Shown: piece by piece, positions 9,192 through 29,272 of the stretch
How the letters are laid out: the number at the start of each line of letters is the position of its first letter
How positions within the stretch are numbered: position 1 is the first letter of the stretch
Origin: Hymenobacter chitinivorans DSM 11115
GTDB lineage: Bacteria > Bacteroidota > Bacteroidia > Cytophagales > Hymenobacteraceae
Assembly (NCBI RefSeq): GCF_002797555.1
Contig: NZ_PGFA01000001.1
Coordinates: 2,604,001-2,668,000 of the forward strand
DNA: 64,000 nt
Direction: 5' to 3'
Program-made: the position numbers and the translations under genes
The notes under the pieces: generated by a model
Databases searched by the model: none
What the model saw: the letters and a program-made list of their open reading frames with translations, nothing else
Told to the model about the DNA's origin: nothing

Positions 9192-9209
9192 CGGTCTAAC
9201 CCTCACGCT

Positions 9210-12767: not shown

Positions 12768-13190
12768 ATGGAACACGGCATTGCTTCTTTTCTGGGCCGG
12801 GGCTGGAGCTTTCCGCCCCATTTTGATGAGCGCACCAAGCTGCTGGTGACGGCCGCCGATGAAGACGACATTCGCCAGAGCCTGCACATTCTGTTTCACA
12901 CCGAGCCCGGGGAGCGAATCATGCAGCCCGAGTACGGCTGCGCCCTGCGGCAATTTCTTTTTGAGCACCCTTCGCTCTCGACCATCACCCACATGCAGGA
13001 CGTCATTGCCAAGGCCATTCTGCGGTTTGAGCCCCGCATCGTGGTAGAGGCCGTGCTCGTGGATACCCAGCAGCTCAACGACGCGCTGCTCTTTATTCAC
13101 GTCGACTACACGATTCGGACCGTCAACAGCCGGCACAACGTGGTGTTCCCCTTCCTGCGCGAGGCCACCTTGCTGGGCGGCAAAATTTAA
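12768..13190 (+). CDS. GPW/gp25 baseplate protein (Afp9-like)
   Basis: A 140-residue protein of the gp25-like lysozyme-fold baseplate family, which is structural and not enzymatic. Motifs include FDERTKLLVTAADEDDIRQSL, the central EPGERIMQPEYGCALRQFLFE and the C-terminal YTIRTVNSRHNVVFPF. It connects wedge proteins to the first sheath ring. It lies 18 bp after PAAR and 21 bp before the large wedge gene. Confidence 0.93.
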   Translation: MEHGIASFLGRGWSFPPHFDERTKLLVTAADEDDIRQSLHILFHTEPGERIMQPEYGCALRQFLFEHPSLSTITHMQDVIAKAILRFEPRIVVEAVLVDTQQLNDALLFIHVDYTIRTVNSRHNVVFPFLREATLLGGKI

Positions 13191-13211: not shown

Positions 13212-16200
13212 ATGTCCACCCCGGCACCTGATTTTCCTTCTTCCAAGCATCACTCGCACTTACAGAGCGGCGGCGTTTCGCAGCACGCCCGCCTGCTGCC
13301 CGACCTGCTGCCCGGCCACCTGGAGCTCGACGCCCGGCAGCCGGAAGATCTGCTGGCCTACATCACCCGGTTTTCGGACGTGGTGCGCTACTACCGCGTG
13401 GCCGAGGACCAACTCATTGCCGACGGTTTCTGGAGCCTGGAGCACCACCGCAGCACCCTGATCCTGGCCGTTATTGCGGTCCAGCCGGTAAAAACCCAGG
13501 CCGAAAACTACGCGGCCCTGATCCGGCAGCTCCGCGACAAAAGCAGCGACACCGACCGGCAGCGCCGGGCCCTGCAGCGCCTGTTTGCCGCCATTGGCAG
13601 CATGGCCACTACTCTCAATAAGTGGTACGAGTACCACCGCATGGCCGGCCTGCACCTCGTGTTTCAGGGTGAGCTGGAGGAGGCCATTGACAAGCTCGCG
13701 CCCGTACTGCGCAGCGCGGCCCTGTACGAGGCGGTGCTGGCCCGGCTGAAAGTGGTGCGCCGCACGACCCTGACCGAGGAGTTTTTGCAGGACTTCAACC
13801 TGCGCAGCTGGCACCACGCCCAGGCGGCCCTGACCTGGCTGGATCCGGCGGAAGTAGAGGCTTTGCACCAGCAGTTGCTGCGCCACGCGCTGCAGCCCGC
13901 CACGGTGGTGGATGAGCTGCTGGACTTGCTGCGCAAATTCCAGAACACCCAGATTCACCTGGCCAATCTGGCCCGCAAAACCCTGCGCCACGGCTCCGAA
14001 AGCAAGGGCGACTACCTGCCCGAAATCGGCTTGCTGCTTACCTTCACCCGCCTGTATACCTACGCCCAGCGGGCCCTGAACCACATTCCGGCCCGGCACC
14101 TGGACTACTACTATCGCCAGGTGCTGCGCACGGAGCCGCGGGGCGCCGTGGTGCCCCACTCCTACGCCAGCTTTGAGCTCATCAAGGGCAGCCGGGCGGT
14201 GCGCGTGCCCGCCGGACTGCTGGTGGAAGGCGCCAAGGACGCGGCCGGGCAGCGCACCTTTTTCCGGACGGCCGAAGAGCAGACCCTCACGCCCTGGCGG
14301 CTCGAAACGTTGTCGACCCTGCACGTGGCCCGGGCTTCGGCCGCGCCCGGGGCCCCGGTAACGGGGATTTACCTGGCTCCGGTGGCCAACTCGGCCGATG
14401 GCCTGGGCCTGCAGCCGGTGAAAAGCCAGGTGGGCTGGCCGCTGTTTGGGGAAGACCAGGCCCTGAAAAGCCGGCAGTACCGCACCATGCCCGATGCCGA
14501 GCTGGGCTTTGCGGTGGCCTCGCCCGTGCTGCTGCTCCAGGAAGGGCACCGCAGCATTCAGCTGCGCCTGCACTGCTCCGCCGCCGACATCAAGACCCTG
14601 GGGCTGTTGCTCTTTGTCGCCAATGCCCACTGGGCCACGACCAATGCGCAACGGGCCGGGCACTGGGTGGCGGCCTTCGAGCGGCTGGGCGTGGCCGCTT
14701 TTCAGGCTTCCATCACCGGGGCCACCGGCTGGCAAGCCCTGACTATCAAGACCCTGACGCTGGATCAGGCTCAGAACACCGTGACCTGGCTTTTCACCCT
14801 GGACGCGGGCCGACCGGCCGTGGTGGGCTACCAGCCCGAGCTGCACACCGGCCGGTACGCCACCACTCAGCCCGTGCTGAAACTGGTGCTCAACCCCGGT
14901 GTGTCGGAGTACGGCTACTCGTTTTTTGCGGCCTTGCGGCCCCGTAAGATTCAGCTGCTGGTAGCGGCCCGCCACGTGCAGGGCCTGCTGCTGGGCAACC
15001 AGCTGGGCCGCCTCGACGCAAGCAAGCCCTTCTACCCGTTTGGCACCTCCGTGCGCCAGGGCTCCTATTTGCAAGTGGGCCTGCCCGAGCTTTACGCCAA
15101 GCGCGTGACCAAGCTGACCCTGCTCATCGACTGGCTGCAGCTGCCCACGGAGCCCGGCGGCTTCGCCGAGTATTACCGCGGCTACACCCCGCCCGTGGCC
15201 AACGACTCGTTCAAAGTCGAAGCCAGCTTCCGCTCGGGCTGGCAGTGGGTGCCCTCGTTGCCGCAGCGCAAGCGTTACGCGCTGTTTCAGCCCGAACCTA
15301 CCGCCACCCGGCAGCTGCGCAACTGCACCCAGCTCGAGCTTACGCCGGTAGGCGCCGGGCACGGGGCCGCTACCGACGCCGGCCCGCTTCACGACCCGGG
15401 CTACGTACGCCTGGAGCTGCGGGAGCCGGCCATGGGCTTCGGCGACGACCAGTATCCGCTGCTGCTGGCCGATACGCTGCAGCACAACGTGCGCAACTCC
15501 CCGAAGCGCCCCCTGCCCCGGGCCCCGTTTGCGCCCCTGGTCAAAACCCTGAAACTTTCCTACCAGGCCGAGGATGAGCTGGATATGGCCCTGCTGGCCC
15601 GGAGCCAGAGCGGTGGGCACCAGCACTTTTTTCACCTCCACCCCCTGGCCGAATACGAGCCGGTGCGCCTGCTGGGCCAGTCGTCGGCCGACAACCACCT
15701 GGTGCCCCTGCTGCCCGAGTTTGCCGGCGAAGGCTGCCTCTACCTGGGATTGAGCAACCTCACGCCGGGCGCCACCATCAACCTGCTGTTTGTGCTCCAC
15801 CCCCAAAGCCGCACGATTACCTCGGCCCAGGATTTTCCGCCCGTCAGCTGGTCGTATTTAGCCGATAACCAGTGGATTTCGTTTGTCCCGGGCCACACCC
15901 TGCGCGACACCAGCCAGGGCTTCACCCACCTGGGCCAGACGTACCTGACGCTGCCCGAAATCCTGGACACCAACCACGCCGTGATGCCCAGCGGGCTGTT
16001 TTGGGTGCGGGCCCAGGTGCCCGGCAATACCAAGCTGTTCAGCCACGTGCAGGCGGTACACCCGCAGCTGGTGCGGGTGGTGCAGGAGCTGCCCGACCCG
16101 CTGCCCTTGCCGCCCAAGTCCCTGCTGGGCGTGGCCACCGTCCGCCTGCCCCTGCCCTGGCTCGGGGGCCGCGACGCGGAAGATGAAGCCGCCTACTACA

Positions 16201-16988
16201 CCCGCGTGAGTGAGCGGCTGCGCCACCGCAACCGCGCCCTCACGCCCTGGGACTACGAGCGTATCGTGCTGGCCCAGTTTCCGGAAGTACACAGCGTGAA
16301 GTGCCTGACGGCCCAACAGGTGCGCCGCCTGGGCTACGCCCCGGGCCGCGTGGTACTGGCCGTGCTGCCCCACCAGCACGCGCTGTCCGAAAGCGGGGAG
16401 CCGGCCACCACCTGGCCTTTTTTCAGCGCGGCCCAGCTGCTGCGCATCCGCAACTGGGTGCAGGCCCTGGCCTCACCCCACCTGGAAGTGGAAGTGCGCA
16501 ACCCGCAGTACGAGGTCCTGACCGTACGCTGCCAGATTCTCTACAAATCCGTCCGGCAGCAGTTCGACCAGTCGCTGCAGCTGCACCGCGACCTGGCCGA
16601 GTTTCTTTCGCCCTGGGGGCTGAACGAGGCCCTGCGCGGGGGCTTCCACGACCATTTCCACACTTCCCTGATTTCCTCCTTCATTAACCAACGCCCCTAC
16701 GTGGACCGCATCTGGGGCTTTTCGCTAATCAAGACGGGCCTGGTAGACGAGCGGTACCGTTACTACGACTCGGCTACTTTTCAGGAGCAGGACGACGTGG
16801 AAATCCGCGCCGACTGGCCCTGGACGGTGTTTGTGCCCGCCCAGCGGCATTACCTGGAAATCAAGACCCAGAAGGAATGGGCCGCCCCGCAGACCACCGG
16901 CATCGGCGACTTGCGCATTGAGGAAGGCTTCACCATTGGCCTGCACTTCGACCACGAACCGGGCCCCGGGGCGGCAGCAGCGTTATGA
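13212..16988 (+). CDS. Baseplate J-like wedge protein (Afp11-like)
   Basis: A 1258-residue baseplate wedge protein. The first ~350 residues are helical (LRDKSSDTDRQRRALQRLFAA, TTLNKWYEYHRMAG). The C-terminal third holds the gpJ/gp6-like signature at residues ~995-1025 (RLRHRNRALTPWDYERIVLA, then QFPEVHSVKCL). It is much larger than phage gpJ, as usual for Bacteroidota CIS. It probably forms the wedge ring that anchors the sheath. The stop overlaps the next start by 4 bp. Confidence 0.87.
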   Translation: MSTPAPDFPSSKHHSHLQSGGVSQHARLLPDLLPGHLELDARQPEDLLAYITRFSDVVRYYRVAEDQLIADGFWSLEHHRSTLILAVIAVQPVKTQAENYAALIRQLRDKSSDTDRQRRALQRLFAAIGSMATTLNKWYEYHRMAGLHLVFQGELEEAIDKLAPVLRSAALYEAVLARLKVVRRTTLTEEFLQDFNLRSWHHAQAALTWLDPAEVEALHQQLLRHALQPATVVDELLDLLRKFQNTQIHLANLARKTLRHGSESKGDYLPEIGLLLTFTRLYTYAQRALNHIPARHLDYYYRQVLRTEPRGAVVPHSYASFELIKGSRAVRVPAGLLVEGAKDAAGQRTFFRTAEEQTLTPWRLETLSTLHVARASAAPGAPVTGIYLAPVANSADGLGLQPVKSQVGWPLFGEDQALKSRQYRTMPDAELGFAVASPVLLLQEGHRSIQLRLHCSAADIKTLGLLLFVANAHWATTNAQRAGHWVAAFERLGVAAFQASITGATGWQALTIKTLTLDQAQNTVTWLFTLDAGRPAVVGYQPELHTGRYATTQPVLKLVLNPGVSEYGYSFFAALRPRKIQLLVAARHVQGLLLGNQLGRLDASKPFYPFGTSVRQGSYLQVGLPELYAKRVTKLTLLIDWLQLPTEPGGFAEYYRGYTPPVANDSFKVEASFRSGWQWVPSLPQRKRYALFQPEPTATRQLRNCTQLELTPVGAGHGAATDAGPLHDPGYVRLELREPAMGFGDDQYPLLLADTLQHNVRNSPKRPLPRAPFAPLVKTLKLSYQAEDELDMALLARSQSGGHQHFFHLHPLAEYEPVRLLGQSSADNHLVPLLPEFAGEGCLYLGLSNLTPGATINLLFVLHPQSRTITSAQDFPPVSWSYLADNQWISFVPGHTLRDTSQGFTHLGQTYLTLPEILDTNHAVMPSGLFWVRAQVPGNTKLFSHVQAVHPQLVRVVQELPDPLPLPPKSLLGVATVRLPLPWLGGRDAEDEAAYYTRVSERLRHRNRALTPWDYERIVLAQFPEVHSVKCLTAQQVRRLGYAPGRVVLAVLPHQHALSESGEPATTWPFFSAAQLLRIRNWVQALASPHLEVEVRNPQYEVLTVRCQILYKSVRQQFDQSLQLHRDLAEFLSPWGLNEALRGGFHDHFHTSLISSFINQRPYVDRIWGFSLIKTGLVDERYRYYDSATFQEQDDVEIRADWPWTVFVPAQRHYLEIKTQKEWAAPQTTGIGDLRIEEGFTIGLHFDHEPGPGAAAAL

Positions 16989-17851
16989 GAAATACCGACG
17001 GGCTCAAAAACCGCAAGGAGCTAAAGGACTACTTCAAACGGGGCGCCATGCCCACCGAGGAGAGCTTCGCCAACCTGATTGAATCGGTGGTGAACCGGCG
17101 CGACGACGGCTTCGAGAAGTCGCCGGAAGCGGGGCTGATGCTGGCCGCCACCGACGAGTTCCGGCGGCTGCTGGCCTTCTATAAGGACATGCGCAAGCTC
17201 CAGGAAGACGCCCCGGCCTGGCTGCTGGAGCTGCTGCAGAACGAGAGTGAGGGCCAGGCGGCGGGCCTGAGCTTCTCCGAATTGCAGACCGGCACCGCCG
17301 CGCTGGAAGACCCGGCCGCCTACGACTGCGGCTGTGACGACGAGGTGGGACCGGGCACCGCTACCGGGCCCAAAACCGTGAGCCGGCTGGTGCTGCAGCC
17401 CGGCGGCAACGTGGGCATTGGCACCACCCGGCCCACCGAGCGCCTCGACGTGAACGGCTTCGTGGCCAGCCGGGGCCGCATTGGCACGTACCCCGGCGCC
17501 CAGCCCGGCAACGCGGCCATTCCGGCCGACCGCCAGTGGTACCCCATCATCAGTGGCCTCGACGGGCTGCACGCGTTTGAGATTGTGGCCGCCGCCTACG
17601 GCCCGCTGGGCAAGGGCCGCTACGCCCTGACCCACGCCACGGCCCTGAGTGCGTTTGGCAAGTCGCGCAGCCGCATTTACCGCCAGAATGCCTGGTTCCG
17701 GGGCTGGTTTCAAAAGATTCAGTTCCGCTGGACCGGCGAGCTGCACAACTACAGCCTGGAAATGCGCTCGGCCAGCAACTACGGCCCGCAGGGGCAAATC
17801 GTGTATTCCATTACTCATCTGTTCGACGACCGTCGGCCCCTCGTGCCATGA
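16985..17851 (+). CDS. Fibre-like CIS protein (candidate receptor binder)
   Basis: A 288-residue protein. The helical N-terminus (LKNRKELKDYFKRGAMPTEE, SFANLIESVVNRRDDGF) looks like a baseplate-attachment region. Residues ~140-160 carry NVGIGTTRPTERLDVNGF, a motif typical of trimeric fibre proteins with S74-like or adhesive ends in Bacteroidota. The C-terminal ~125 residues (DRQWYPIISGLDGLHAFEIV to the end) form a compact unknown domain with no S74 protease signature. It overlaps both neighbours by 4 bp. The position between the two wedge genes fits a tail fibre; target binding is inferred. Confidence 0.65.
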   Translation: MRNTDGLKNRKELKDYFKRGAMPTEESFANLIESVVNRRDDGFEKSPEAGLMLAATDEFRRLLAFYKDMRKLQEDAPAWLLELLQNESEGQAAGLSFSELQTGTAALEDPAAYDCGCDDEVGPGTATGPKTVSRLVLQPGGNVGIGTTRPTERLDVNGFVASRGRIGTYPGAQPGNAAIPADRQWYPIISGLDGLHAFEIVAAAYGPLGKGRYALTHATALSAFGKSRSRIYRQNAWFRGWFQKIQFRWTGELHNYSLEMRSASNYGPQGQIVYSITHLFDDRRPLVP

Positions 17852-20361
17852 GCAGCGCTTTGTTTGAGAAGAACCCGGCCATCTTCAAGGACTGGCCCCT
17901 GGAAAAGGGCGAGGACTTTGCCTTTTTGCGCCGGCGCGGGCTGGAAATCCTGCAGCAGCTGAGCGGGGAAACCTGGACCGACTACAACACCCACGACCCC
18001 GGTATTACGATGCTGGAGGCCCTGTGCTACGCCCTGACCGACCTCACGAACCGGGCCAACCAAGCTATTCCGGACCTGCTGGCCCCCGACCCGCACCAAC
18101 CCGCCGCGGCGGCCGGCAGCACCTTTATTCCGCCCCACGAGGCCTTTGCCAATCACCCCGTGACGCTGGCCGACTACAAGGCCTTGCTGCTCGACAACTT
18201 CCGGACCCAGCTGAAAAACGTCTGGATTGAGCCGCTCCGGCCCGAAACCGCCGGGCCGGAAGCGCTGGGCCGGTACCAAGTGGAAGTTATCCTGACCAAG
18301 CCGCCGGTGGACGCGCTGACCCTGGGCCAGCACCGGGAGCTGCGGGCCGCGGCCCAGCTGCGGGAAACCGTGCTGGCCGACGACATCCGGGACTTTCTGA
18401 ACCTGCACCGCAACCTGGGCGAGACCTTCGCCCAGGTAGTGGTGCTGCAGCCCCGGCAGGTCAGCATCAGCGGCACTATCGAGATTGAGAAGGGCTACGC
18501 CCAGGAGGAAGTGCTGGCCGAAATTCTGTGGCTGATTGACCGGTACCTGGACCCCTACGTGTCGCCGCAGCACCTGCAGGACCAGCTCAAAGCCGGGCAG
18601 GCGGTGGAGAATATTTTTGCCGGGCCGATGCTGCACAGCTACCTGCTGCAGGAAACCGCCTTTCGGGACCGGCATACGCAGGTGCACCTGGCCAGTATTC
18701 TCAAGCGCCTGCTGCAGCTGCCCGGCGTACGGGGTACCAGCGGCCTGACGCTGCGCCTGGAACAGGGCCCGCCCTCGCCCATGGTGCTGCTGGCCCCGGA
18801 TGAGTTTCCGGTGCTCGACGCCCGCGCCAGCCTCCGCGACCTGGTGGTAAACATTCAGGGCATCGGGCTGGAATTTGACCTGGACCGGGTGTTCCGCCTT
18901 TTCAAGGAGCGGGAACGGCTGGCCGACAACCGCCTGCGCAGCCGCCTGCCCAAGGAGCAGCTCCACTTCGCCCCGGAGGCGGGCAATTATCTGAACCTGA
19001 GCCGGTACGAATCCATCCAAACCGCTTTTCCGGCCATTTACGGACTGGGCGAAGAAGGCCTGCCCAGCAACGCTTCCTTGCTGGCCCAGGCCCAAACCCT
19101 GCAGCTCAAGGGCTATTTGCTGCTGTTCGAGCAGATTATGGCCAATTTCTGCGCCCAGGTCGACCACGCCAAGGATTTGCTGTCGGCCGGTACCCAGCGC
19201 GCCACCTACTTCAGCCAGCCCCTGCACACAGTGCCGCGCTGGGACCTGCTGCTGGGCGACGTGCCGGCCTCGTCCCACGAAATTCTGCACGACCACACCA
19301 GCTACCAGCGCCGCCGGGCCCAGCACCGCGCCCCCACGGCCGACACCCGCTACCAACGCACCCTGCAGCGTACCCTGCGCGAGCAGCCCGACGAATTCTT
19401 GGAGCGCCGCAACACGTTTCTGATGCACCTATTGGCCCGGTTTGGCTACAGCGTCAACCCCTACCAGCCGTTACTGAGCCAGTCGCGGGCCATCAGCCGG
19501 CACGCCATCGACACGCGGGAGCGGCTGCTGTGCTACCTCTCGGCGGCCACCTACCACCGCGGCGCGGCCCGCTTCGAGGTGCAGCTGCCCGACCTGCCGG
19601 AAGCCCACGAAACCTCGGGGCTGGAGTTTTTCCTCTACCTGCTCACCGGCATCGAGTATTTCGAGCTCAAAGCGGCCCGCCACCAAACCCTGGCCGAGCT
19701 GGCAGCCCGCGTGCACCTGGCCGGGCGTGGCACCGAGCCCGAGCCCCAGGCCCAGCTGCTGGTGCGGGGTGACGTACCCGATTTTGCGGCCTTTCTGCGC
19801 CTGATGCAACAGGCCCGCACGACCCCGCCCCGCCGGCTCACGCCCACGGCCGTGCAGCTAACGGTGGGCGGCAAACCCGTGGAGCTGGAGCTGCGCCGCA
19901 AGCTGCCCCGGGTGGCACAGGTGGGCGTGGTCCAGTGGGTGCAGCGCTATTTCCAAACCCTGGACGAGCAGCTGGAGCGCTTCTACCTGCTGGACCACGT
20001 GCTGCTATGGCCCACCGATGGCTCCGCCGGACCGGGCGGGCCCGAGGCCAGCTTTTTCCAGTACCAGGCCACGCTGGTGCTGCCCTCCTTTACCCGGCGC
20101 TTCAGCCTGCGGACCGAAGCCAAGGACCACCGCTCGACGTACTCCTACCGGGAATATTTCCAGTATTTGGTGGAGCAGAACGCCCCGGCTCATTTGCTGG
20201 TAAACGTGCTGTGGCTTAGCTACGAGGAGCTACAAGCCTGGGAGACGCTCTACCTGGCGTTTCGGGCGGCCCGGCGGCGGCTCAACCCGGCGGACCTGGA
20301 GCAGCCCCGGCAGCAGCTGACGGCCTTTTTACGGCGCCACCTGGCCGCCCAGACCTACTAG
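17848..20361 (+). CDS. Second large baseplate wedge protein (Afp12-like)
   Basis: An 837-residue protein. Near residues 43-66 it has the wedge motif WTDYNTHDPGITMLEALCYA followed by LTDLTNRA, which recurs in gp6/gp7-like CIS baseplate proteins. No signal peptide or membrane segment is visible. It starts within the stop of the fibre-like gene and ends 12 bp before the tape measure gene. It should pair with the Afp11-like protein to build the baseplate wedges. Confidence 0.8.
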   Translation: MSSALFEKNPAIFKDWPLEKGEDFAFLRRRGLEILQQLSGETWTDYNTHDPGITMLEALCYALTDLTNRANQAIPDLLAPDPHQPAAAAGSTFIPPHEAFANHPVTLADYKALLLDNFRTQLKNVWIEPLRPETAGPEALGRYQVEVILTKPPVDALTLGQHRELRAAAQLRETVLADDIRDFLNLHRNLGETFAQVVVLQPRQVSISGTIEIEKGYAQEEVLAEILWLIDRYLDPYVSPQHLQDQLKAGQAVENIFAGPMLHSYLLQETAFRDRHTQVHLASILKRLLQLPGVRGTSGLTLRLEQGPPSPMVLLAPDEFPVLDARASLRDLVVNIQGIGLEFDLDRVFRLFKERERLADNRLRSRLPKEQLHFAPEAGNYLNLSRYESIQTAFPAIYGLGEEGLPSNASLLAQAQTLQLKGYLLLFEQIMANFCAQVDHAKDLLSAGTQRATYFSQPLHTVPRWDLLLGDVPASSHEILHDHTSYQRRRAQHRAPTADTRYQRTLQRTLREQPDEFLERRNTFLMHLLARFGYSVNPYQPLLSQSRAISRHAIDTRERLLCYLSAATYHRGAARFEVQLPDLPEAHETSGLEFFLYLLTGIEYFELKAARHQTLAELAARVHLAGRGTEPEPQAQLLVRGDVPDFAAFLRLMQQARTTPPRRLTPTAVQLTVGGKPVELELRRKLPRVAQVGVVQWVQRYFQTLDEQLERFYLLDHVLLWPTDGSAGPGGPEASFFQYQATLVLPSFTRRFSLRTEAKDHRSTYSYREYFQYLVEQNAPAHLLVNVLWLSYEELQAWETLYLAFRAARRRLNPADLEQPRQQLTAFLRRHLAAQTY

Positions 20362-20373
20362 CCCTTTCCCAGT

Positions 20374-23300
20374 ATGTCCTCCCGGCAGCCCCACGCTATT
20401 CAGCAACTGCGCTTCGAGCTTGCCTCGGACAGCGCCGCGCTGGCGCCCCGGCTGCAGGACCGCGTCAGCAGCCTCTACCGGCACGAGCTGGAAAACCTGC
20501 TGGCCGAGGAGCTGGGCCGCCACTGCCCGCCGGATGTGCTGCTGACCCTGCCCGAGCTGAAACTGGACCTGGGCGCCATTGCCGACAGCCAACTGGAAGC
20601 CGAGCTGCCCCGGCGGCTGCGGCAGGCCCTGTATGCGGCTCTGGGCACCGAGCTGCAACGCCAGGCCTCACCCACTGCCGCTGGTGGCGAACAGGCCGCC
20701 GGACCGCTGAGCGTGGTAGCCTTCTTTCTGGCCCACGGCTACCTGCCCTGGCAAACCGACGCCAGCGCTTTTTCCCTGACCGACGCCGTTTTGCTGGCCC
20801 TGAACCAGACTCCGGTCGAGTTTCGCGGCCTGCTCCGCCGGCTGGGGCAACAGCAGGCCGTGCGGCAGCGGCTGGTGCGGCAGCTGAGTCCCGCCCTGCT
20901 GCAGCGCATTATCGGCCTGCTCGAGCCCACCCACGCCCTACTGATTGAGGCCTACATCCAGGAAACCACCCGGGCCCAGCAGCAGCAGCGCCTGGCCCCG
21001 GTGCGCGACGCCGACCTGCAGCAGATAGTCTACGAGCTGGTACTAACCGACTTGCTCATCAGCCGCAGCACCCAGTTCAACCGCCGCACGTTTATCGAAA
21101 GTCAGGTGCGGCGCCTGGCGGCCCATTTCAACCTGAGCTTCGAGGCGCTGCTGCACCGTTTGGTGGTTTTGTCGCAGAAGCCGCTGCCCTTTTCGGCCCA
21201 ATCGTCCTTGCCCGGCATTCTGCGCGGCATTTACCAGGACGTTGCGGCCAAAACGCGCCGTGGCGCCACCCCACCGCGCCAGGAGCTACCCACGGGGCCG
21301 ACGCCCGGGCCACCAATACAAGAACCAGCAGCGGAGCCCCCGGCAACAGCTTCGCCGCTGGAGCTGCTGGTGTATTTTCTGCGGCACCAGTCGCTGCCCT
21401 ACTCGGCGGGGGCCCACTACTCGGCCACCGACTTGCAGGCCAGCTTCAGGGCCGTGCTGCAGCAGGGCTGGGCGGCCGTAGTAAACGTGGTGCAGCAGGC
21501 TGGAATTCAGCCGGCCGCTGCCACGTTGGCCCGCCGCTTTCCGGCCAGCTTACTGGAACAGCTGGTGCGCCAAGCGGTGCCGGGGCAGGTGCGCCCATTT
21601 CTGGCCGTGCTGGCCGAGCACCGGACCACCCCAATTACGTGGCAGTGGCCGGCCCGGGCCCGGCACGAGTTGCTGTGGGAGAAGTCGTTGCCCTACCTGC
21701 TCCCGCGCCGGCCAGTACCATTCAACAGCCAGCATTTCAGCCGCTGGCTAACCCAGCAGTTAGCGGGAGACGGATTTGCAAATGAATTCGGGGCGGATGA
21801 GCAGTCCGCCACGTTTGGGGTAAATGGGGTTTCCTCAGAATCACTAGAATCAGTGGGCAGGGTATCGGCAGGAGCTTCTGCGCCTGGGCGGGCCGCAAGC
21901 CCACGCGCGGGCGTTGCCGCTGGACCAGGCGATACCCGGCCGCACCAGCGGGCAACTGAGCCCCGGTTGCCGGCTCCCGCTCAGTTGGTGTTGGCCGCCG
22001 ACCAGCTTGCCAGCAAACCGTTTTCTGCCAGCAAATTATCCGGCAACCAAGAGCATTACAATCAGCTACCCGCGCCGCTGGCAGCTACCGCCGAAAACCA
22101 GTCCTCAGCGGCCGTGCCCTTCACCGCGCAGCCTCAATCCGCGGCGGCCCAATCCAGCGTTGACCACTCGGCCGCCGCCGCCGAAGCCGAGCAGCCTGCT
22201 ACGCATTCGAGCGAGCCGCTGAGCAGCGGCAGCGCCCCGGCGGCCGTAACTGCGCCGGGAAATTCTGCCGCCGACTTACCGCGGGGGCAACAGTTGGCAG
22301 CGGGAGCTGAAGTCGACTTACGCACTGCTATTTCTTGGCCAGCAACTGCAACCACTCTCCCGACCACAACTACTGTCCGCCCGGACCCAGTTACGGCGGC
22401 TGTATCATCAAGCGCCGCTGCTGGCTTATCTACCGTCCCAAACGCCGCTCCAGCCGCCGAAACAGCTTCAGCAGCACCGGTATCTGCCGTTTCGGTGGCG
22501 GCCGGCCGGGCCACATTGGGCAGCATGCCCCGCAGCTTGGCAACCGCACCCGGCTCGTGCCCAGATGCGGCGCTACCCAACCTGGCGGCTTGGCTTAACG
22601 CCTCGGCCCACCACGCCCCCGCCCAGCCGCCGCTACGTGAGTGGCCGGCTCCGGCGGGCCGCGAAATGGTGCGGCACTACCTGCGGGTGGGCAGCCCGGC
22701 GCTGACGGCCGCCCGGCTTTCCGTACCGCAGGTCCAGCAGCTGTTAGCGCAGTTAATTGCGCAGCGCGACGCCGAAACCTTGCGGCTGCTACAGACTTAC
22801 CCCACCCAAGCCTTGAGGCAGCGCCGCCTGTCGGCCCTGCTCGACTTTGACCTGCTCCGCCGCCTGCACCACGCCTTGCCCGCCCCAACCAGCCAGCCGC
22901 GGCAGCAGTGGGAGTCCGTGGCTAAGGTTTTCGGGACGCGCAACCCAAACACGGCGGGCCCGGTGACGCCCCGACTGCGGCAGCTGGTGCTGGCCGCGTA
23001 CTACCGCTTTACGTTCACCAACCACCGGCTATCAGTTCGGGGTCAGCAGCGGGAGGTTCGGCAGATGGCGGCCGCCCTCAACCTTGCCTGGCCCACTGTG
23101 CTGCGCACCATGCGGCAGCTGGCCGGCCCCCACTCTGGTTTGCACCGGGAGCCACTTTTCGCCCAACTTTTCCTACCCGCCGCCCCTGTTACCGAACCAG
23201 TTGGGGTGGCCCGCCGAACAGGTTACCGCTCCGTATTTAAGGACTCCCGGCCCGGGTCGGGAACGGGCGCCAGCCGGCCTCGGGTAGTAGCACCGGCGGC

Positions 23301-25158
23301 CGTGGGGTCTACCTCAGCGGCGGCCCTCAGCTCGGGTGCGAGCTATGAGCCGCGGGCCGCCGCTACTACGGCGGCCCCGCGGCTGCCCAATGCCGTGCAG
23401 GATCTGGTGCTGCATTTTTTGCGGCATGGCCAGCTGCCGTGGTGGCAAACTTCGCCCGTCACGTTGCAGGAGCTGCGTCAGCACCTGGCCCAGCTCCTGC
23501 GGCGCCAGGGAGCCCAGGTACGCAGTTTCCTGACCAGTCACGCGGCCGAGGCGGCCGTGCGGCAGCGCCTGGTCCAGGTAGCCGACTTTGCCTCGCTCAC
23601 TCAGCTCACGACGGCCACCGCGGCTAGTGCGGGCCGCGGGGCGGGTATCCGGCGGGCATTGCTGGCTCTGGAGCGGGCCACACCCCACCCCTCGCAGTAC
23701 GCGGCCGGGCAGTTCCGACTTTTTCTGAAGGAAGCCTACCTACTATTTCACTTCTCCCTGGCCCAGTCGGCGGCTACGCCGGCGCTGGGCGCGGTGCGGC
23801 AGTTGGCTACCAGCTACGGCCTGCCCTGGCAAAGCCTGCTGCGCCAGGTCAATGCTCTAAGTCAGCACCAGCCGACCCTGGCCACGGAGCCCTTCTTTGC
23901 CTGGCTGCTCGGGGCCCACGAAGCCGAGGAGCAGCGCCGCCACAACCGCCGCCCGCGGCTCCCCAACCGCCGAGTTACGGCCGCTCGGCCAGCCAGCGCG
24001 CCAACCCGGCCAACTCCCTATTCCCCGCTGTACGAGGCCCTGGAGCACTACCTGCAAACCGGCAAGCTGCCAGCGGCGGGAACAGGGCCGGGAGCGGCGC
24101 TAAGCTTGCCGGCCATCTGGACGGAACTGCTCCAACCCACCAATCGGGTCTTGCTGGCGCGGGTGCGGCCCTACCTGGGCCTGGCTGTGAGCCGTAGTCG
24201 AATAGCCAGCAGCGTGAGTGCGGAGCAGTTTTTCACTTTGCTGGGCCGCCTTTATCCCGTGCATGCCCGCCTCCTGGCGCCCGTGCTGCGCGACTGGCAA
24301 CAGCTGGCCGCCCGCGGCCTTGTCGAGCTGGGGAATTCGCCGACGGCCCTATGGGAGCTGGTATTAACAGCCATAGAAGCCACGGCGGCAGCTAGTTTCC
24401 AGACCGCGCAGCTGCTCAGCCGCCTGCTGACGGCTGAAGCCAAGCTGAGCTCACGCCACGCGGCGGCCTTGGCCCGGGGTGCCTCAATAGCCGGCGTACT
24501 GCTACGCCAGGCGGGCCGGGCGGGCCTCAGCTTTCAGAGCCGGCTGCCCGCCCTGCTTCAGCACCTGGACACCACGACCCGCCTGGCGGCCCGGCAACAG
24601 GCCAGTGCAGCGGCGGCAGCGGCGCCGGCCGAAGTGGCAGCTGAGGTGCCGGCTCTGGCCACGGCTTACATTACCAACGCCGGACTGGTGCTGCTCTGGC
24701 CGTTTCTGACCATGCTCTTCGACCGTCTAGGCTACCTCGAAAACCGCCAATTCAAATCGGCGACGGAGGCGTACCGGGCCGTGCACCTGCTGCAGTTTCT
24801 GGCCACCGGCGCCGAAGGTTTTCCCGAGTACGTGCTGGTACTCAACAAGCTGCTCTGCGGCGTGCAGCAAACCTCGCCCGTGGTGCGGGAGCTGGCCCTG
24901 ACTGCCGAGGAAAAAGAAACCGGCCTGGGTTTGCTGCAGGCCGTCATCAGCCGCTGGGAAATTCTGAAGAAAACCAGCGTGGCGGGTTTGCAGGAGACTT
25001 TTCTGAACCGCAACGGCCGCCTCGACTGGCAGGACGACAAAATACTACTCACCGTGGAAACCAAGGCCTTTGACATGCTGCTCGACCAGCGACCCTGGTC
25101 CATTGCCGTTATCCGCCTGCCCTGGATGCTGCTTCCCCTTTACGTAACATGGCGCTAA
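20374..25158 (+). CDS. CIS tape measure protein
   Basis: A 1594-residue protein of the CIS tape-measure type. The start is diagnostic (HAIQQLRFELASDSAALAPR), as is the C-terminal domain (ITNAGLVLLWPFLTMLFDRL, GLQETFLNRNGRLDW, IAVIRLPWMLLPLYVTWR). Five related segments of the form FLxHGxLPW occur at residues ~111, 329, 763, 1008 and 1220, each followed by a helical stretch. A Pro/Ala/Thr/Ser-rich low-complexity stretch spans ~475-735. In phage and CIS, tape measure length sets tube length. The stop overlaps the ATPase start by 10 bp. Confidence 0.9.
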   Translation: MSSRQPHAIQQLRFELASDSAALAPRLQDRVSSLYRHELENLLAEELGRHCPPDVLLTLPELKLDLGAIADSQLEAELPRRLRQALYAALGTELQRQASPTAAGGEQAAGPLSVVAFFLAHGYLPWQTDASAFSLTDAVLLALNQTPVEFRGLLRRLGQQQAVRQRLVRQLSPALLQRIIGLLEPTHALLIEAYIQETTRAQQQQRLAPVRDADLQQIVYELVLTDLLISRSTQFNRRTFIESQVRRLAAHFNLSFEALLHRLVVLSQKPLPFSAQSSLPGILRGIYQDVAAKTRRGATPPRQELPTGPTPGPPIQEPAAEPPATASPLELLVYFLRHQSLPYSAGAHYSATDLQASFRAVLQQGWAAVVNVVQQAGIQPAAATLARRFPASLLEQLVRQAVPGQVRPFLAVLAEHRTTPITWQWPARARHELLWEKSLPYLLPRRPVPFNSQHFSRWLTQQLAGDGFANEFGADEQSATFGVNGVSSESLESVGRVSAGASAPGRAASPRAGVAAGPGDTRPHQRATEPRLPAPAQLVLAADQLASKPFSASKLSGNQEHYNQLPAPLAATAENQSSAAVPFTAQPQSAAAQSSVDHSAAAAEAEQPATHSSEPLSSGSAPAAVTAPGNSAADLPRGQQLAAGAEVDLRTAISWPATATTLPTTTTVRPDPVTAAVSSSAAAGLSTVPNAAPAAETASAAPVSAVSVAAGRATLGSMPRSLATAPGSCPDAALPNLAAWLNASAHHAPAQPPLREWPAPAGREMVRHYLRVGSPALTAARLSVPQVQQLLAQLIAQRDAETLRLLQTYPTQALRQRRLSALLDFDLLRRLHHALPAPTSQPRQQWESVAKVFGTRNPNTAGPVTPRLRQLVLAAYYRFTFTNHRLSVRGQQREVRQMAAALNLAWPTVLRTMRQLAGPHSGLHREPLFAQLFLPAAPVTEPVGVARRTGYRSVFKDSRPGSGTGASRPRVVAPAAVGSTSAAALSSGASYEPRAAATTAAPRLPNAVQDLVLHFLRHGQLPWWQTSPVTLQELRQHLAQLLRRQGAQVRSFLTSHAAEAAVRQRLVQVADFASLTQLTTATAASAGRGAGIRRALLALERATPHPSQYAAGQFRLFLKEAYLLFHFSLAQSAATPALGAVRQLATSYGLPWQSLLRQVNALSQHQPTLATEPFFAWLLGAHEAEEQRRHNRRPRLPNRRVTAARPASAPTRPTPYSPLYEALEHYLQTGKLPAAGTGPGAALSLPAIWTELLQPTNRVLLARVRPYLGLAVSRSRIASSVSAEQFFTLLGRLYPVHARLLAPVLRDWQQLAARGLVELGNSPTALWELVLTAIEATAAASFQTAQLLSRLLTAEAKLSSRHAAALARGASIAGVLLRQAGRAGLSFQSRLPALLQHLDTTTRLAARQQASAAAAAAPAEVAAEVPALATAYITNAGLVLLWPFLTMLFDRLGYLENRQFKSATEAYRAVHLLQFLATGAEGFPEYVLVLNKLLCGVQQTSPVVRELALTAEEKETGLGLLQAVISRWEILKKTSVAGLQETFLNRNGRLDWQDDKILLTVETKAFDMLLDQRPWSIAVIRLPWMLLPLYVTWR

Positions 25159-26522
25159 CTCCTACCCTTTCTACTCTTTCCCCGCCGGCCGCCGTGGCCG
25201 CCACCGGGGCCGCCCTGGCCCGGGAGCTCGACTGGCTCGTGCGCGTGCTCGAAGCACGCCTGCAGCACTTCTTTGAGAACAACCCGGACCCGCTGCCCGA
25301 GCTCCAGGCCCCGGAACTGGACCCGCCCGACGATTTCTACGCCCAACTGGTGCGGCGGCACGAGCTGGATTGGGCGAGCCGGCTGGTGCTGGCCCTGGCC
25401 CTGGCGCCCCACCTGCGGCCCCAGGCCCTGGATGCGCTGTTTATCCGCAACAGCGCCTACGACCGGGGCTTTACCGAATTTGGGGGCCTGAAGGGCAAAA
25501 ACCACAGCGGCTTCTTGCCCACCGGCGAAACGGCCCTGTTTCTGCTGGCCGGCCCCAACCTGGCCCAGCGCCTGACCTACCACAGCACCCTGTGGCACCA
25601 CTCGCCGCTGGGCCGGGCCCAGCTGGTGCAGCTGGGGGCCACCGAAGCCGGGGAGCCCGCCCTGAGCGGGGCCCTCACGGTGCCGGCCGATACGCTGGCC
25701 CTGCTCACCACCGGCCAGCCGCCCCGGCCCGACTACAGCCCCGACTTTCCGGCCAAACGCGTGAGCACCACCCTGGAGTGGGCCGACCTGGTGCTGGACC
25801 ATCACGTGCAGGAACAGCTGCTGGAAATGCGGGTCTGGCTCGAAAATCAGGACGCGCTGCTGGGCCAGCCCCACCTGCGCCGCCACCTCAAGCCGGGCTA
25901 CCGGGCCCTGTTTTACGGTCCGCCCGGCACGGGCAAAACCCTCACGGCCTGCCTTTTGGGCAACATCACCGGCCACGAAGTGTACCGCATCGATTTGTCG
26001 ATGGTGGTGTCCAAGTTTATCGGCGAAACCGAGAAAAACCTGGGCCGGGTGTTTGATTTGGCCGAGCACCGCCGCTGGATTCTGTTCTTCGACGAAGCCG
26101 ACGCCCTGTTTGGCAAGCGCACGGCCACGGCCTCGTCTAACGACCGGTACGCCAACCAGGAAGTGGCCTACCTACTGCAGCGCATCGAGGATTTTCCCGG
26201 CGTTATCGTCTTGTCGTCGAACCTGAAGGCCAACCTGGACGAGGCCTTTGCCCGCCGCTTTCAGGCCATGATTCACTTTCTGGCCCCCAAGCCCCCCGAG
26301 CGGGAACTACTCTGGCGCCAGGCCTTTGCCGCCCCGCTCGTACTGGCCGACGACGTGGACTTTGGCGACCTGGCCGAAGAGTATAGCCTGACCGGCGGGG
26401 CCATTATCAACGTGCTGCGCTACTGCGTGCTCCACACCCTGCAGCCGCCCCGCCCCATCACCCGGGCCGACATTGTGAAGGGCGTGCAGCGCGAAGTGGC
26501 CAAAGACGGCAAAACCCTGTGA
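25149..26522 (+). CDS. AAA+ ATPase of the CIS (Afp15/Pvc15-like)
   Basis: A 457-residue ATPase. Walker A is GPPGTGKT at residues 257-264, Walker B is ILFFDEAD with the acidic pair at 315-316, and sensor-like VIVLSSNLKANLD and arginine-finger-like EAFARRFQ follow. The N-terminal ~240 residues are a CIS-specific region. In PVC and Afp clusters this ATPase is needed for assembly or cargo loading of particles. It overlaps the tape measure gene by 10 bp, so it is part of the operon. Confidence 0.95.
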   Translation: MALTPTLSTLSPPAAVAATGAALARELDWLVRVLEARLQHFFENNPDPLPELQAPELDPPDDFYAQLVRRHELDWASRLVLALALAPHLRPQALDALFIRNSAYDRGFTEFGGLKGKNHSGFLPTGETALFLLAGPNLAQRLTYHSTLWHHSPLGRAQLVQLGATEAGEPALSGALTVPADTLALLTTGQPPRPDYSPDFPAKRVSTTLEWADLVLDHHVQEQLLEMRVWLENQDALLGQPHLRRHLKPGYRALFYGPPGTGKTLTACLLGNITGHEVYRIDLSMVVSKFIGETEKNLGRVFDLAEHRRWILFFDEADALFGKRTATASSNDRYANQEVAYLLQRIEDFPGVIVLSSNLKANLDEAFARRFQAMIHFLAPKPPERELLWRQAFAAPLVLADDVDFGDLAEEYSLTGGAIINVLRYCVLHTLQPPRPITRADIVKGVQREVAKDGKTL

Positions 26523-26600: not shown

Positions 26601-28988
26601 GTGAAGAAGTTTTATTCAAAAGTCAATTCCTACTTCAGCGCCCGGTTTGTGGCCCTGCTGCTGGCTGTTATCGTTGGGCTCAACGGCCTGGCGCTGTATC
26701 TCAGTCTGCGGCCGGCCCGGGCCCAGCAGCCCGCCGCGGCCCCGGTCCCGCAGTCGGCAGCCTTCACCGCCACAGCCCCGGGCAGCGTGTTCGACTTTCA
26801 GCAGTACGACCCGCTCGACCGGCAGCGCCTGAGTCGCGACACGACGTACCAGGCCCGGCCCCGGCCCCACAGCCCGGTGCGCTACCAGCTGCGCAGGGGC
26901 GCCACCGTGTTTGGCTGGCACCCCTACTGGATGGATAATGCCTACGTCAACTACGATTTTAACCTGCTTTCCTACGTGGCGTTTCACGGCTACGAGGCCA
27001 CCCGGACCGGTGAACTGACCGAGCCTTCGCGCAGCGACTTCGACGGACTGCTACAGGCCGCCCACCGCACCAACCCACACTGCAAGGTGCTGCTGAGCGT
27101 GGCCTACCGCGAAACCGAGGCCGATACGCTGCTCTTCAGCGCCGACAGCGTGGCCACGGCGGCCCGCAACCAGCTCGTGGAAAACGTGGTGGACGAGGTG
27201 CTGGCCCAGAATGCCGACGGCGTAAATCTGAACCTGGACTTCGGGCTGCCCACTCCCACCTGGACGCCCCAAACCCGCCAGCAGCTGGTAGCGGAAAGCC
27301 AGCAGCTAGCCAAGCGCCAGCAGGCCTGGCAGCAGAAGCGCGACTCCCTGGCCCCGGCCCTGGCCGCCCTGAACCACGCCCAGGTGATGGTGCTGCTGGC
27401 CCAGGGTTCGTTGGACGTGGCCCGCAAATATCTCAATCAGCGCACCGAGCAGCTCACCGCCCAAACCCGGGACCTGCAGCAGGAAATGCAGCGGCTGTCG
27501 GCCGAGCTAAGCCAGCAGGCCCAGCAGTACGTGGAGCTGGGCCTGCGCAAACAGCCCCTGGCGGCTAAGAACCAGCAGTTGCCCGCCCAGAAGAAGCTGC
27601 TGGAACGCCGCAAAAAATGGCCGGCCCCGGTGCGGCTCAACTACCAGAAAAAGCTACTCAAATACCGCCAGGATTCGACCCTGCTGGTACAATACGGCCT
27701 GCAGCTGCAGCAGCACCGCCGGGACGTGGCCGCCTACCGCCAGCAAGCCGCCGTCTACAAGCAAAGCCTGGCCGACCGCCGCACCCTGGCCGGGCAGCGC
27801 CAGGCGGCCGAAGCCGCCCTCAACCGGGCCTCGCTCGACTCGGCTTTCAAAGAGCAGCAGGTCGAGCAGTTGGCCGCCGGCTTCGCCCAGCGCAAAGCCG
27901 CCTACAAGGCCGACTCTGCCGTGGTAGCCCAGGACCAGGTGGCGCTGGGGCAGCTGCTGGCCCAGGCCGCGGCTGACTCGGCCCTCTACGCCCAGCAGCT
28001 ACCCCAGCGCCTGCAAAACCAGCAGGCCCGGGCCGGGCGGCTGCGCTCCTTCGTAGCCGATCTGGCCATGAACCTGCGTCAGGAAGACTCCTCGTTTGTG
28101 CTGACCTTGAGCGTGCCCGCCGTGGACCCCACCGAAACCTATTCCCACCTGCAGGTATTGACCAAAGTCGTCGACCTATTCGTCATCAAGCCCTACGACT
28201 ATACCGCCGGTCAGCTGCCGCCCGGGCCCATCATGCCGCTCAAGCCCACGGCGCAGTCGGGGGGGCAGGCGGTGAGTACCTCCGTGAAATACTACCTTAC
28301 CCAGGGCGTGCCGCCCGGCCAGCTGCTGGTTACGTTTGCCCACCTCAACAAGCTCTGGCCCCAGGCCAACCAGCTGCCGCCCCGCGGGTTGGCCGCCGAA
28401 AAGCCCGACCCCGCCCCGTTCCGCTACCTAACCAACAGCGTGTTCTGGCCCCAGAAAACCCTGCTGGCCCAGTCCGACAGCACCACGCTCGTCACCCTGA
28501 CGGATTTGCGCAAAATGCAGGCCTGGGTGGAAGACTCGGCTACGCTGGGGCCCAAATATTACTGGGTTGCCAAGCAGCACCTGGCCGGCGTGGGCATCTG
28601 GGCCCTGGGCTACGACAATAGCGACGACCAAACCTGGAACCTGCTGCGGGAGCGGTTTGGCGTGCCCATTGCCGAGCCCCTGCTCGACCAGATCCTGCAC
28701 GTGCTGCTGCTCTCAGTGGCGGTGCTGGTGGCGTTTTTCCTGTTTGGCCTGGCCCTGGCCCTGGCCTTGCGGGCCTACGCCATTGTCCCCAACCCGCCGC
28801 TGTTTGCCACCATCTGCGTGCTCATCGTGCTCTGCGTGGCCATTCTGGGGCTGTACCTGTGGTTTATCGACGAGCTGGACTTTTCCTCCACCCAGCTCCC
28901 CTGGATTCTGGCCTTGGCCGGCCTGTGGCTGCTGGGGTTTATTGGCTTCGTGTACAGCCGCTACTGGCGCCAGCAGGTGCTGCCGTAA
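26601..28988 (+). CDS. Membrane-anchored GH18-like protein with coiled-coil insertion
   Basis: A 795-residue protein with a GTG start, 78 bp after the CIS ATPase on the same strand. Residues 16-36 form one membrane segment. A GH18-type TIM barrel begins with FGWHPYWMDN and is split: after strand β4 a Gln/Ala/Arg-rich coiled coil of ~260 residues (~224-484) intervenes, then the barrel resumes (LTLSVPAVDP, VIKPYDYT, GVGIWALGYDN). The motif that should read DGxDxDxE is DGVNLNLD (206-213), with Asp213 in place of the catalytic Glu, so chitinase activity is doubtful. Three membrane helices follow (~699-725, 735-755, 765-785). The predicted topology places the barrel and coil in the periplasm and both ends in the cytoplasm. 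Possible roles are glycan binding or anchoring and gating of the CIS; both are inferred. Confidence 0.75.
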   Translation: MKKFYSKVNSYFSARFVALLLAVIVGLNGLALYLSLRPARAQQPAAAPVPQSAAFTATAPGSVFDFQQYDPLDRQRLSRDTTYQARPRPHSPVRYQLRRGATVFGWHPYWMDNAYVNYDFNLLSYVAFHGYEATRTGELTEPSRSDFDGLLQAAHRTNPHCKVLLSVAYRETEADTLLFSADSVATAARNQLVENVVDEVLAQNADGVNLNLDFGLPTPTWTPQTRQQLVAESQQLAKRQQAWQQKRDSLAPALAALNHAQVMVLLAQGSLDVARKYLNQRTEQLTAQTRDLQQEMQRLSAELSQQAQQYVELGLRKQPLAAKNQQLPAQKKLLERRKKWPAPVRLNYQKKLLKYRQDSTLLVQYGLQLQQHRRDVAAYRQQAAVYKQSLADRRTLAGQRQAAEAALNRASLDSAFKEQQVEQLAAGFAQRKAAYKADSAVVAQDQVALGQLLAQAAADSALYAQQLPQRLQNQQARAGRLRSFVADLAMNLRQEDSSFVLTLSVPAVDPTETYSHLQVLTKVVDLFVIKPYDYTAGQLPPGPIMPLKPTAQSGGQAVSTSVKYYLTQGVPPGQLLVTFAHLNKLWPQANQLPPRGLAAEKPDPAPFRYLTNSVFWPQKTLLAQSDSTTLVTLTDLRKMQAWVEDSATLGPKYYWVAKQHLAGVGIWALGYDNSDDQTWNLLRERFGVPIAEPLLDQILHVLLLSVAVLVAFFLFGLALALALRAYAIVPNPPLFATICVLIVLCVAILGLYLWFIDELDFSSTQLPWILALAGLWLLGFIGFVYSRYWRQQVLP

Positions 28989-28999
28989 CGCCTGCGGCT

Positions 29000-29272
29000 T
29001 TATTCCACCGGGGCCGTATCGGCCAGCATGCTCACGGCTGCCACCACCAGCCGGGTCAGGTAGATGCCCACCAGGCAGAGCACGAAGAGCAGCACTTCGA
29101 GGGTCGTTTCGTTGTGGTGCAGCTCCTGCACCACCATTTCGTAGTGAGCCGTGGATACTTCCAGCAACTGGTGCAGGCCCATGGAGAGCAGCAAGGCTAC
29201 GATAAGGGCCCCAAAGAGCCACAGGAACTCGCGCAGAAAGGACTGCTTCAAGCCGGCTAGAAAGTCTTTCAT
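29000..29272 (-). CDS. Small two-helix membrane protein
   Basis: A 90-residue protein with two hydrophobic helices (FLWLFGALIVALLLSMGL and LEVLLFVLCLVGIYLTRLVV) separated by a polar, Glu/His-rich loop. No family is recognised. It converges with the GH18-like gene, whose stop lies 11 bp away. The hydrophobic pattern and clean ATG start support a real gene. Confidence 0.55.
   Translation of the reverse strand: MKDFLAGLKQSFLREFLWLFGALIVALLLSMGLHQLLEVSTAHYEMVVQELHHNETTLEVLLFVLCLVGIYLTRLVVAAVSMLADTAPVE

What the first reader, a model, noticed from the sequence alone, without database searches (positions are those of the whole stretch)
26601..28988. Pseudo-chitinase membrane protein with a TIM barrel split by a long coiled coil, last gene of the CIS locus
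The GH18 motif has Asp213 instead of the catalytic Glu, the barrel is interrupted after β4 by ~260 residues of coiled coil, and the protein has one N-terminal and three C-terminal membrane helices. A catalytically doubtful glycan-binding fold anchored in the inner membrane right after the CIS ATPase could dock particles to the envelope or sense peptidoglycan. Both this protein and the sheath carry unusual coiled coils, which raises the possibility of contact.
Basis: partly seen in the sequence, partly recalled or inferred. Interest (0 to 1): 0.7.

Follow-up and report, generated by a model that had tools for sequence, protein, structure and literature searches.

The report
Candidate membrane dock for contractile syringes
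Beside a bacterial spring-loaded injection machine lies a gene for a membrane protein that keeps company with this kind of machine in many relatives, and it is probably the part that holds the machine to the cell's own inner membrane.

Summary
Window 26601-28988 encodes an N-terminal helix, a GH18 TIM barrel split after β4 by about 260 mostly helical residues, and three C-terminal membrane helices. Asp213 stands at the catalytic Glu position. Lost Glu and insert are late changes of this genus-level lineage. The conserved core is the three-helix module, nearly always ending in Pro, mostly Leu-Pro. Homologues with the module belong to contractile injection systems (CIS). In the order sample 35 of 36 homologue-bearing genomes carry the CIS tape measure. 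In the genus sample it is in 11 of 11 long-tape-measure genomes and 0 of 10 short ones. Phylum-wide only 6 of 12 long-tape-measure genomes have it. Small f21 genomes (Amoebophilus/Cardinium-like, inferred) carry the module without GH18, beside baseplate genes. It pairs with a Cis13-like fibre: 33 both, 19 neither, 2 fibre only, 0 module only among loci examined. The fibre's N-terminus matches thylakoid-CIS Cis13. Best reading: inner-membrane dock of T6SSiv-type CIS, with GH18 as a periplasmic wall-facing accessory. Docking is inferred, not shown. Contact with the sheath coil is not supported.

The parts
26601..28988 (+). GH18-like membrane protein, 795 aa: candidate inner-membrane dock of the CIS
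26640..26705 (+). N-terminal membrane/signal helix (residues 14-35)
26883..27239 (+). first half of GH18 barrel, to end of beta4 (residues 95-213)
27216..27239 (+). degenerate catalytic motif DGVNLNLD (residues 206-213)
27249..28034 (+). lineage-specific helical insert between beta4 and alpha4 (residues 217-478)
28035..28670 (+). second half of GH18 barrel (residues 479-690)
28683..28979 (+). conserved three-helix membrane module (residues 695-793)
28974..28985 (+). C-terminal tail QVLP; final Leu-Pro conserved in most of the family
4607..5176 (+). Pvc16-like cap protein
   Evidence: PF14065
5173..6243 (+). conserved CIS gene of unknown role (356 aa), often neighbour of the cap gene in relatives
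6280..8676 (+). sheath, 798 aa, with its own lineage-specific helical insert
8739..9731 (+). two tube proteins
   Evidence: PF06841
9938..10639 (+). CIS tube protein (PF19266), probable tube initiator
10632..12404 (+). VgrG-like spike
12768..13190 (+). gp25-like baseplate protein
13212..16988 (+). Cis11/Alg11-type baseplate protein (1258 aa)
   Evidence: 9rce 3.5e-91, 7aeb 4.4e-85, 7b5h 2.3e-80
16985..17851 (+). Cis13-like fibre protein (288 aa); pairs with the membrane protein
17848..20361 (+). Cis12/Alg12-type baseplate protein
20374..25158 (+). long tape measure protein (1594 aa)
   Evidence: PF19268 8.8e-128
25149..26522 (+). AAA ATPase of the CIS

Best explanation
The gene encodes the inner-membrane dock of a T6SSiv-type (clade Ib) contractile injection system of Bacteroidota. 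The N-terminal signal/anchor helix sends the GH18 barrel into the periplasm. Three C-terminal helices cross the inner membrane and place a short tail ending in Leu-Pro in the cytoplasm. There it receives the baseplate, probably through the Cis13-like fibre (16985-17851) that sits on the Cis11-type baseplate protein (13212-16988). In thylakoid CIS, Cis13 carries its own membrane helix; here Cis13 lacks one and this separate protein supplies it. The GH18 barrel faces the cell wall, ancestrally perhaps as an active wall-trimming or wall-gripping domain that clears or marks the firing site. In the window's lineage the catalytic Glu was lost and a long helical arm grew from the active-site loop, leaving an envelope-binding or spacing role. 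Shown: family, hydropathy and charge pattern, CIS linkage, pairing with the fibre gene, late loss of Glu. Inferred: docking, contact with Cis13, wall binding, any enzyme activity.
For: Order sample, 241 genomes: 35 have a homologue at E <= 1e-10, 34 of these carry CIS_TMP; with the profile hit G188 35 of 36 (Fisher 5e-23). The exception G228 is a GH18-only protein without membrane module. Outside family f21, 33 of 35 genomes with a tape-measure ORF >= 800 aa have it against 2 of 16 below that; of the two, G192's tape measure is split into two ORFs and G011 has one short copy plus two partial ones. Genus sample, 120 genomes: 11 of 11 long, 0 of 10 short (the short ORF of G315 may be cut by its contig end). 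The twelfth bearer, G257, has no tape measure and a copy with only one of the three helices. Named loci (best 80 of 268 kept): of 46 ORFs with >= 2 C-terminal membrane helices 32 have CIS genes in the flank, of 33 GH18-only ORFs none (one fragment of a broken gene, L143, set aside; Fisher 2e-11). All 46 end in Pro. Gene position varies (before the cap gene, after the ATPase, inside the baseplate block). In f21 a GH18-less version with the same tail occurs in 9 of 14 genomes plus G182 and is the divergent neighbour of the Cis11- and Cis13-type genes in 7 of 8 stretches fetched. Positive-inside: loop 1-2 has 3.85 K/R per protein, loop 2-3 0.98 (41 of 56 distinct sequences, those with exactly three helices called). 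Cis13-like gene and membrane protein: 33 both, 12 neither, 1 fibre only; eight further short-tape-measure loci add 7 neither and 1 fibre only. Cis13 N-terminus match to 7b5h All3316, E 1.2e-5; no membrane helix in the window copy. Thylakoid Cis13 precedent: PMC8894136, passages. Best solved match of the family's barrel profile: YdhD 3cz8, 2.6e-33.
Against: No direct evidence of docking, localisation or interaction. In the phylum sample (395 genomes) only 6 of 12 genomes with a tape-measure ORF >= 800 aa have the protein (G000, G425, G429, G611, G403, G493); G119, G508, G537, G645, G618 and G512 do not, nor does G177 of the order sample. They must dock otherwise or not at all. Fibre-only loci exist: G512 (675 aa) and G691 (683 aa), both with an enlarged fibre gene. 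The tail has exceptions: G403 and G493 end in NIVK. Four of 14 f21 genomes lack a clear tail-bearing module; G094 has only a partial match. In 14 of 46 named loci no CIS gene was seen in the flank. Published gut systems (BIS) encode Aasi_0556 homologues; three short-tape-measure f37 loci that I checked show neither the module nor a Cis13-like gene by my profiles, and whether f37 are BIS is unknown. Samples are related by descent, so Fisher values overstate independence.
Confidence: 0.6

Rival explanations
1. Wall-opening factor rather than dock: the protein is a CIS-dedicated GH18 that locally cuts or remodels peptidoglycan so the tube can pass; its membrane helices only tether it. The window copy is a decayed version.
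For: 44 of 62 module-bearing sequences keep the catalytic Glu. Solved relatives by profile include the Bacillus wall enzymes YdhD, YaaH and SleL, though chitotriosidases rank among them too. T6SSi uses MltE and TagL at the wall (PMC10781749, passages).
Against: All 12 copies in the window's genus sample lack Glu, yet 11 of these 12 genomes keep a long-tape-measure CIS. f21 genomes have the membrane module and tail without GH18, although 12 of 14 have murG. The last residues, on the predicted cytoplasmic side, are among the most conserved.
Confidence: 0.2
2. Envelope sensor or trigger: the periplasmic barrel senses wall or envelope damage and the membrane module signals the docked or free CIS to contract, as CisA is needed for contraction in Streptomyces.
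For: CisA is a CIS membrane protein needed for contraction (PMC12237407, passages). The periplasmic part varies (Glu-bearing GH18, Glu-less GH18 with arm, none) while module and tail are kept.
Against: No comparison with the CisA sequence was made; the domains described for CisA differ. No signalling domain was found. It differs from docking only in function, so both may hold.
Confidence: 0.13
3. Effector, immunity or lysis gene that merely travels with CIS loci (for example releasing particles by wall damage).
For: It lies at a locus end in the window, and a predicted chitinase (EAT3) is among CIS-associated toxins (PMC8213781, passages).
Against: One family with a kept membrane module and tail, paired with a baseplate fibre gene, at varied places in the loci; not found in the 10 short-tape-measure genomes of the genus sample.
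Confidence: 0.07

Closest known systems
Cis13 (All3316) of the thylakoid-anchored CIS of Anabaena
   Same: Solves the same problem, holding a CIS baseplate in the cell's own membrane; its N-terminal part matches the Cis13-like gene 16985-17851 of this locus.
   Different: There the membrane helix is part of Cis13 itself (PMC8894136, passages); here it would be supplied by a separate multi-helix protein with a periplasmic GH18 domain.
CisA of Streptomyces coelicolor CIS
   Same: Membrane protein encoded with a CIS, with cytoplasmic and outer parts, proposed adaptor (PMC12237407, passages).
   Different: CisA is described with one membrane helix, a long disordered cytoplasmic N-terminus and a substrate-binding-like outer domain; no GH18 and no three-helix module is described.
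T6SSiv of Candidatus Amoebophilus asiaticus
   Same: Bacteroidota CIS attached to the inner membrane (PMC8894135, passages); G182, a genome of the recalled size of A. asiaticus, carries the GH18-less module beside Cis11- and Cis13-type genes.
   Different: The published anchoring candidate is Aasi_0556, described as tail-fibre-like Cis13 (PMC12210884, section 16). In the passages I saw, no membrane protein of this kind is named.
YdhD / YaaH / SleL GH18 enzymes of Bacillus
   Same: YdhD is the best solved match of the family profile, with YaaH/SleL entries also matched; the DFE end of the motif is shared by most family members.
   Different: Those are spore or sporulation proteins without this module (recalled); here membrane-tethered, CIS-linked, and in the window's lineage without Glu. 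Chitotriosidases and a Desulfitobacterium GH18 match about as well as YaaH/SleL.
TssN-O-P-Q-R membrane complex of Bacteroidota T6SSiii
   Same: Lineage-specific membrane complex that docks a contractile machine (PMC10781749, passages).
   Different: Different machine and different described domains (five-helix TssN, PKD, vWA); none is described there as GH18.

Membership tests
GH18 glycoside hydrolase | TIM-barrel GH18 fold | tested here: met
   Pfam E 1.4e-18; Foldseek GH18 hits, best E 7.1e-13
GH18 glycoside hydrolase | catalytic DxxDxDxE with Glu (recalled) | tested here: not met
   DGVNLNLD in the window; Glu absent in all 12 genus-sample copies
CIS-linked GH18 membrane family (described here) | N-terminal helix, GH18 barrel, three C-terminal membrane helices, C-terminal Pro, CIS in the genome | tested here: met
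T6SSiv / clade Ib CIS | sheath, cap, Alg11/Cis11-type baseplate protein, tape measure and ATPase related to clade Ib systems | tested here: met
   placement by best matches only, no tree built
T6SSiv / clade Ib CIS | attachment of particles to the producer's inner membrane | not testable with these tools
   needs imaging
CisA | single membrane helix with substrate-binding-like C-terminal domain | tested here: not met
   four helices and GH18 in the model; CisA description from PMC12237407 passages; sequences not compared
thylakoid CIS Cis13 | baseplate-binding N-terminus plus own transmembrane helix in one protein | tested here: not met
   gene 16985-17851 has the N-terminus but no membrane helix (max hydropathy 1.15); the finding's protein is GH18 plus module

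The most novel reading that the evidence does not exclude
This is the missing inner-membrane anchor of T6SSiv-type machines in Bacteroidota: a three-helix module whose cytoplasmic C-terminal (E/D)LP peptide is the docking plug for the Cis13/Cis11 baseplate, onto which periplasmic domains are swapped (wall enzyme, dead enzyme with a long helical arm spanning the periplasm, or nothing) to suit each envelope.
Probability: 0.42. Interest if true: 0.85.

Novelty: new variant of a known kind. Interest (0 to 1): 0.73.

Why it matters
How T6SSiv-type machines hold on to the inner membrane has been attributed to a fibre-like protein or to an anchoring complex (PMC12210884). This gives a concrete candidate found in culturable genera such as Flammeovirga, Fulvivirga and Reichenbachiella and in small endosymbiont-like genomes. 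It also gives a testable rule: short Cis13-like gene plus this module predicts a membrane-held machine. And it shows a wall enzyme apparently being turned step by step into a non-catalytic structural part.

Tried and rejected
Rejected.

GH18 lost in f21 genomes because they lack a cell wall: murG is present in 12 of 14, and the Cardinium review says most of the peptidoglycan pathway is kept (PMC12342168, passages). Rejected.

Tail universally Leu-Pro: all 46 named ORFs with >= 2 C-terminal helices end in Pro, but in the 56 distinct sequences (a set I had partly chosen for its Pro tails) 44 are LP, 10 other xP and 2 KE (GH18-only); G403 and G493 end in NIVK. Weakened to 'nearly always Pro, mostly Leu-Pro'.

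G257 as a gene broken by stop codons: my first reading. The stops lie beyond the end of an intact 703-aa frame; the copy has one membrane helix and ends in LLP. Corrected.

Free-standing GH18 relatives (Aquimarina, Tenacibaculum and others) are not CIS-linked in their flanks, so GH18 similarity alone is no marker. The 58 of 395 phylum hits were not used as co-occurrence evidence; four of them in short-tape-measure genomes (G359, G390, G442, G472) proved to be GH18-only, without C-terminal helices. Two order-sample profile hits, G151 and G230 (1130-1162 aa, E 3e-22 and 3e-25; neither genome has CIS_TMP), were dropped from the counts as other GH18 proteins; with them it would be 35 of 38. G225's C-module hit (E 9e-6) showed no Pro-tailed ORF and was taken as chance. 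G611 carries both genes but was left out of the count.

Literature: held-library searches (listings, then passages of seven papers and one section of PMC12210884) showed no description of this family. The two hits (a Pseudoalteromonas study and its preprint) were not opened. The T6SSiv paper (PMC6485382) is not held and was not read. The PDB has entries naming SalCis12 (9rce); no paper using the word SalCIS was found.

Full report
What is there. The ORF 26601-28988 (+) has 795 residues and follows the AAA ATPase of a CIS locus running from 4607. Pfam finds GH18 in two stretches. The catalytic motif reads DGVNLNLD. The AlphaFold2 model shows strands 1-4, then an insert of long helices (217-478), then the rest of the barrel, then three long C-terminal helices. 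Foldseek places it with GH18 enzymes and chitinase-like lectins. The insert is Q/A-rich and its heptad signal is weak. The window's genome has one such gene.

The family. In 241 genomes of the order, 35 carry a homologue at E <= 1e-10. Most are 550-690 aa with an unbroken barrel: 9 residues align to the window's 216-480 in nearly all of them, against 264 in the window. A representative, Fulvivirga L139, models with pLDDT mostly above 90 through the barrel and a direct strand 4-helix 4 connection. Its best structural matches are GH18 chitinases and SleL; by sequence profile the best is YdhD, followed by a Desulfitobacterium GH18, chitotriosidases and YaaH. Of 62 module-bearing distinct sequences with a readable motif, 44 keep the Glu. 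The 18 without it are 11 of the window's genus and 7 others, so loss seems to have happened more than once (no tree was built). In the genus sample all 12 copies lack Glu and carry an insert of 105-264 residues at the same place.

The conserved core. After the barrel come three membrane helices and a short tail. In the 80 ORFs of the named loci, all 46 with two or more C-terminal helices end in Pro. In alignment A2 the Pro is invariant and the Leu before it nearly so (27 sequences). Loop 1-2 is strongly positive and loop 2-3 is not (3.85 against 0.98 K/R per protein, 41 of 56 sequences). This puts the barrel in the periplasm and the tail in the cytoplasm, by the positive-inside rule.

Link to CIS. 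Tape-measure family PF19268 is present in 65 of the 241 genomes; 34 of the 35 homologue-bearing genomes are among them. The exception lacks the membrane module. The protein tracks long tape measures in the order: 33 of 35 with an ORF of 800 aa or more, 2 of 16 below, outside family f21 (of the two, one tape measure is split and one genome has a short copy plus partial ones). In the genus sample of 120, all 11 long-tape-measure genomes have it and none of 10 short ones do, with the caveat that G315's ORF may be cut by its contig end. The only further bearer, G257, has no tape measure; its copy keeps one of three helices and the LLP end. Across the phylum the link is looser: of 12 genomes with a long tape measure 6 have the protein and 6 do not. 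Among the named loci (the best 80 of 268 candidates, 79 distinct), 32 of 46 ORFs with helices have CIS genes in the flank, against none of 33 GH18-only ORFs, one fragment of a broken gene set aside. The gene sits before the cap gene, after the ATPase, or among baseplate genes, so the association is not one inherited gene order.

The GH18-less form. With the C-terminal profile A2, 9 of 14 f21 genomes give matches of E 1e-11 to 1e-32; two of the nine were rows of the profile. These are 189-227 aa reading frames with the same module and a tail ending in LP. G182, whose length of 1,884,364 equals the A. asiaticus genome as I recall it, has one too. In 7 of 8 stretches fetched, the gene is the divergent neighbour of the Cis11-type and Cis13-type genes; the tape measure is not in the same stretch. 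The eighth, G094, shows no CIS gene there.

The partner. The gene 16985-17851 lies between the Cis11 and Cis12 homologues. Its family profile matches Cis13 of the thylakoid CIS over 40 N-terminal residues (E 1.2e-5) and Bdellovibrio fibre proteins in the middle (E 2.2e-10). In thylakoid CIS that N-terminus binds the baseplate and a C-terminal helix of the same protein enters the membrane; removing the helix leaves 9 of 14 particles free-floating (PMC8894136, passages). Of 16 family members here, 15 stay below hydropathy 1.2; the sixteenth peaks in a frame extension upstream of its likely start. Among loci with the relevant stretch in hand, fibre and membrane protein are both present in 33, both missing in 12, and one (G512) has the fibre alone. 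Eight further short-tape-measure loci add seven with neither and one (G691) with the fibre alone. Both fibre-only genes are enlarged (675 and 683 aa). So the anchor helix may have moved from the fibre to a partner protein; this is inference.

Mechanism. Baseplate with Cis13 fibres lands on the cytoplasmic face of this protein, held by its tail and positive loop. The barrel marks or loosens the wall above. On contraction the tube leaves through the envelope. In the window's lineage the barrel has lost its Glu and its active-site loop has become a long arm, whose reach and contacts are not shown.

Limits. No interaction or localisation was tested. Related genomes are not independent. Several long-tape-measure CIS lack both the protein and the fibre, so there are other solutions. 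The tail has exceptions. Gut BIS are reported to encode Aasi_0556 homologues; three f37 short-tape-measure loci showed neither gene by my profiles, so equating the Cis13-like family with Aasi_0556 stays open.

Noticed in passing
6280-8676: The sheath is 798 aa; about 180 residues of helical insert are shared only with G252 among nine close-relative loci, and G169 has different inserts. Most other sheaths seen are about 500-590 aa.
   Followed up: partly
L072 (G257): A genome without the CIS tape measure holds a copy of the GH18 gene whose membrane module is shortened to one helix but still ends in LLP.
   Followed up: partly
5173-6243: A 356-aa gene without Pfam or PHROG match sits beside the cap gene in many of these loci; role unknown.
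   Followed up: no
13212-16988: Closest solved relatives are PDB 9rce (the entry that names SalCis12), AlgoCIS and thylakoid CIS; no paper on SalCIS was found in the held library.
   Followed up: partly
L195, L196, L204: Flavivirga and Aquimarina CIS loci carry a 962-984 aa version of the protein ending in NKP/NRP.
   Followed up: no
G512 (L249/L250), G691 (L285): Enlarged Cis13-like genes (675 and 683 aa) in loci without the membrane protein; perhaps true tail fibres.
   Followed up: partly
L175: A GH18-only relative on a contig labelled Candidatus Muiribacteriota: gene transfer or mis-binning.
   Followed up: no
29000-29272 (-): A 90-aa hydrophobic ORF on the opposite strand just after the gene, before an aldehyde dehydrogenase gene.
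   Followed up: no
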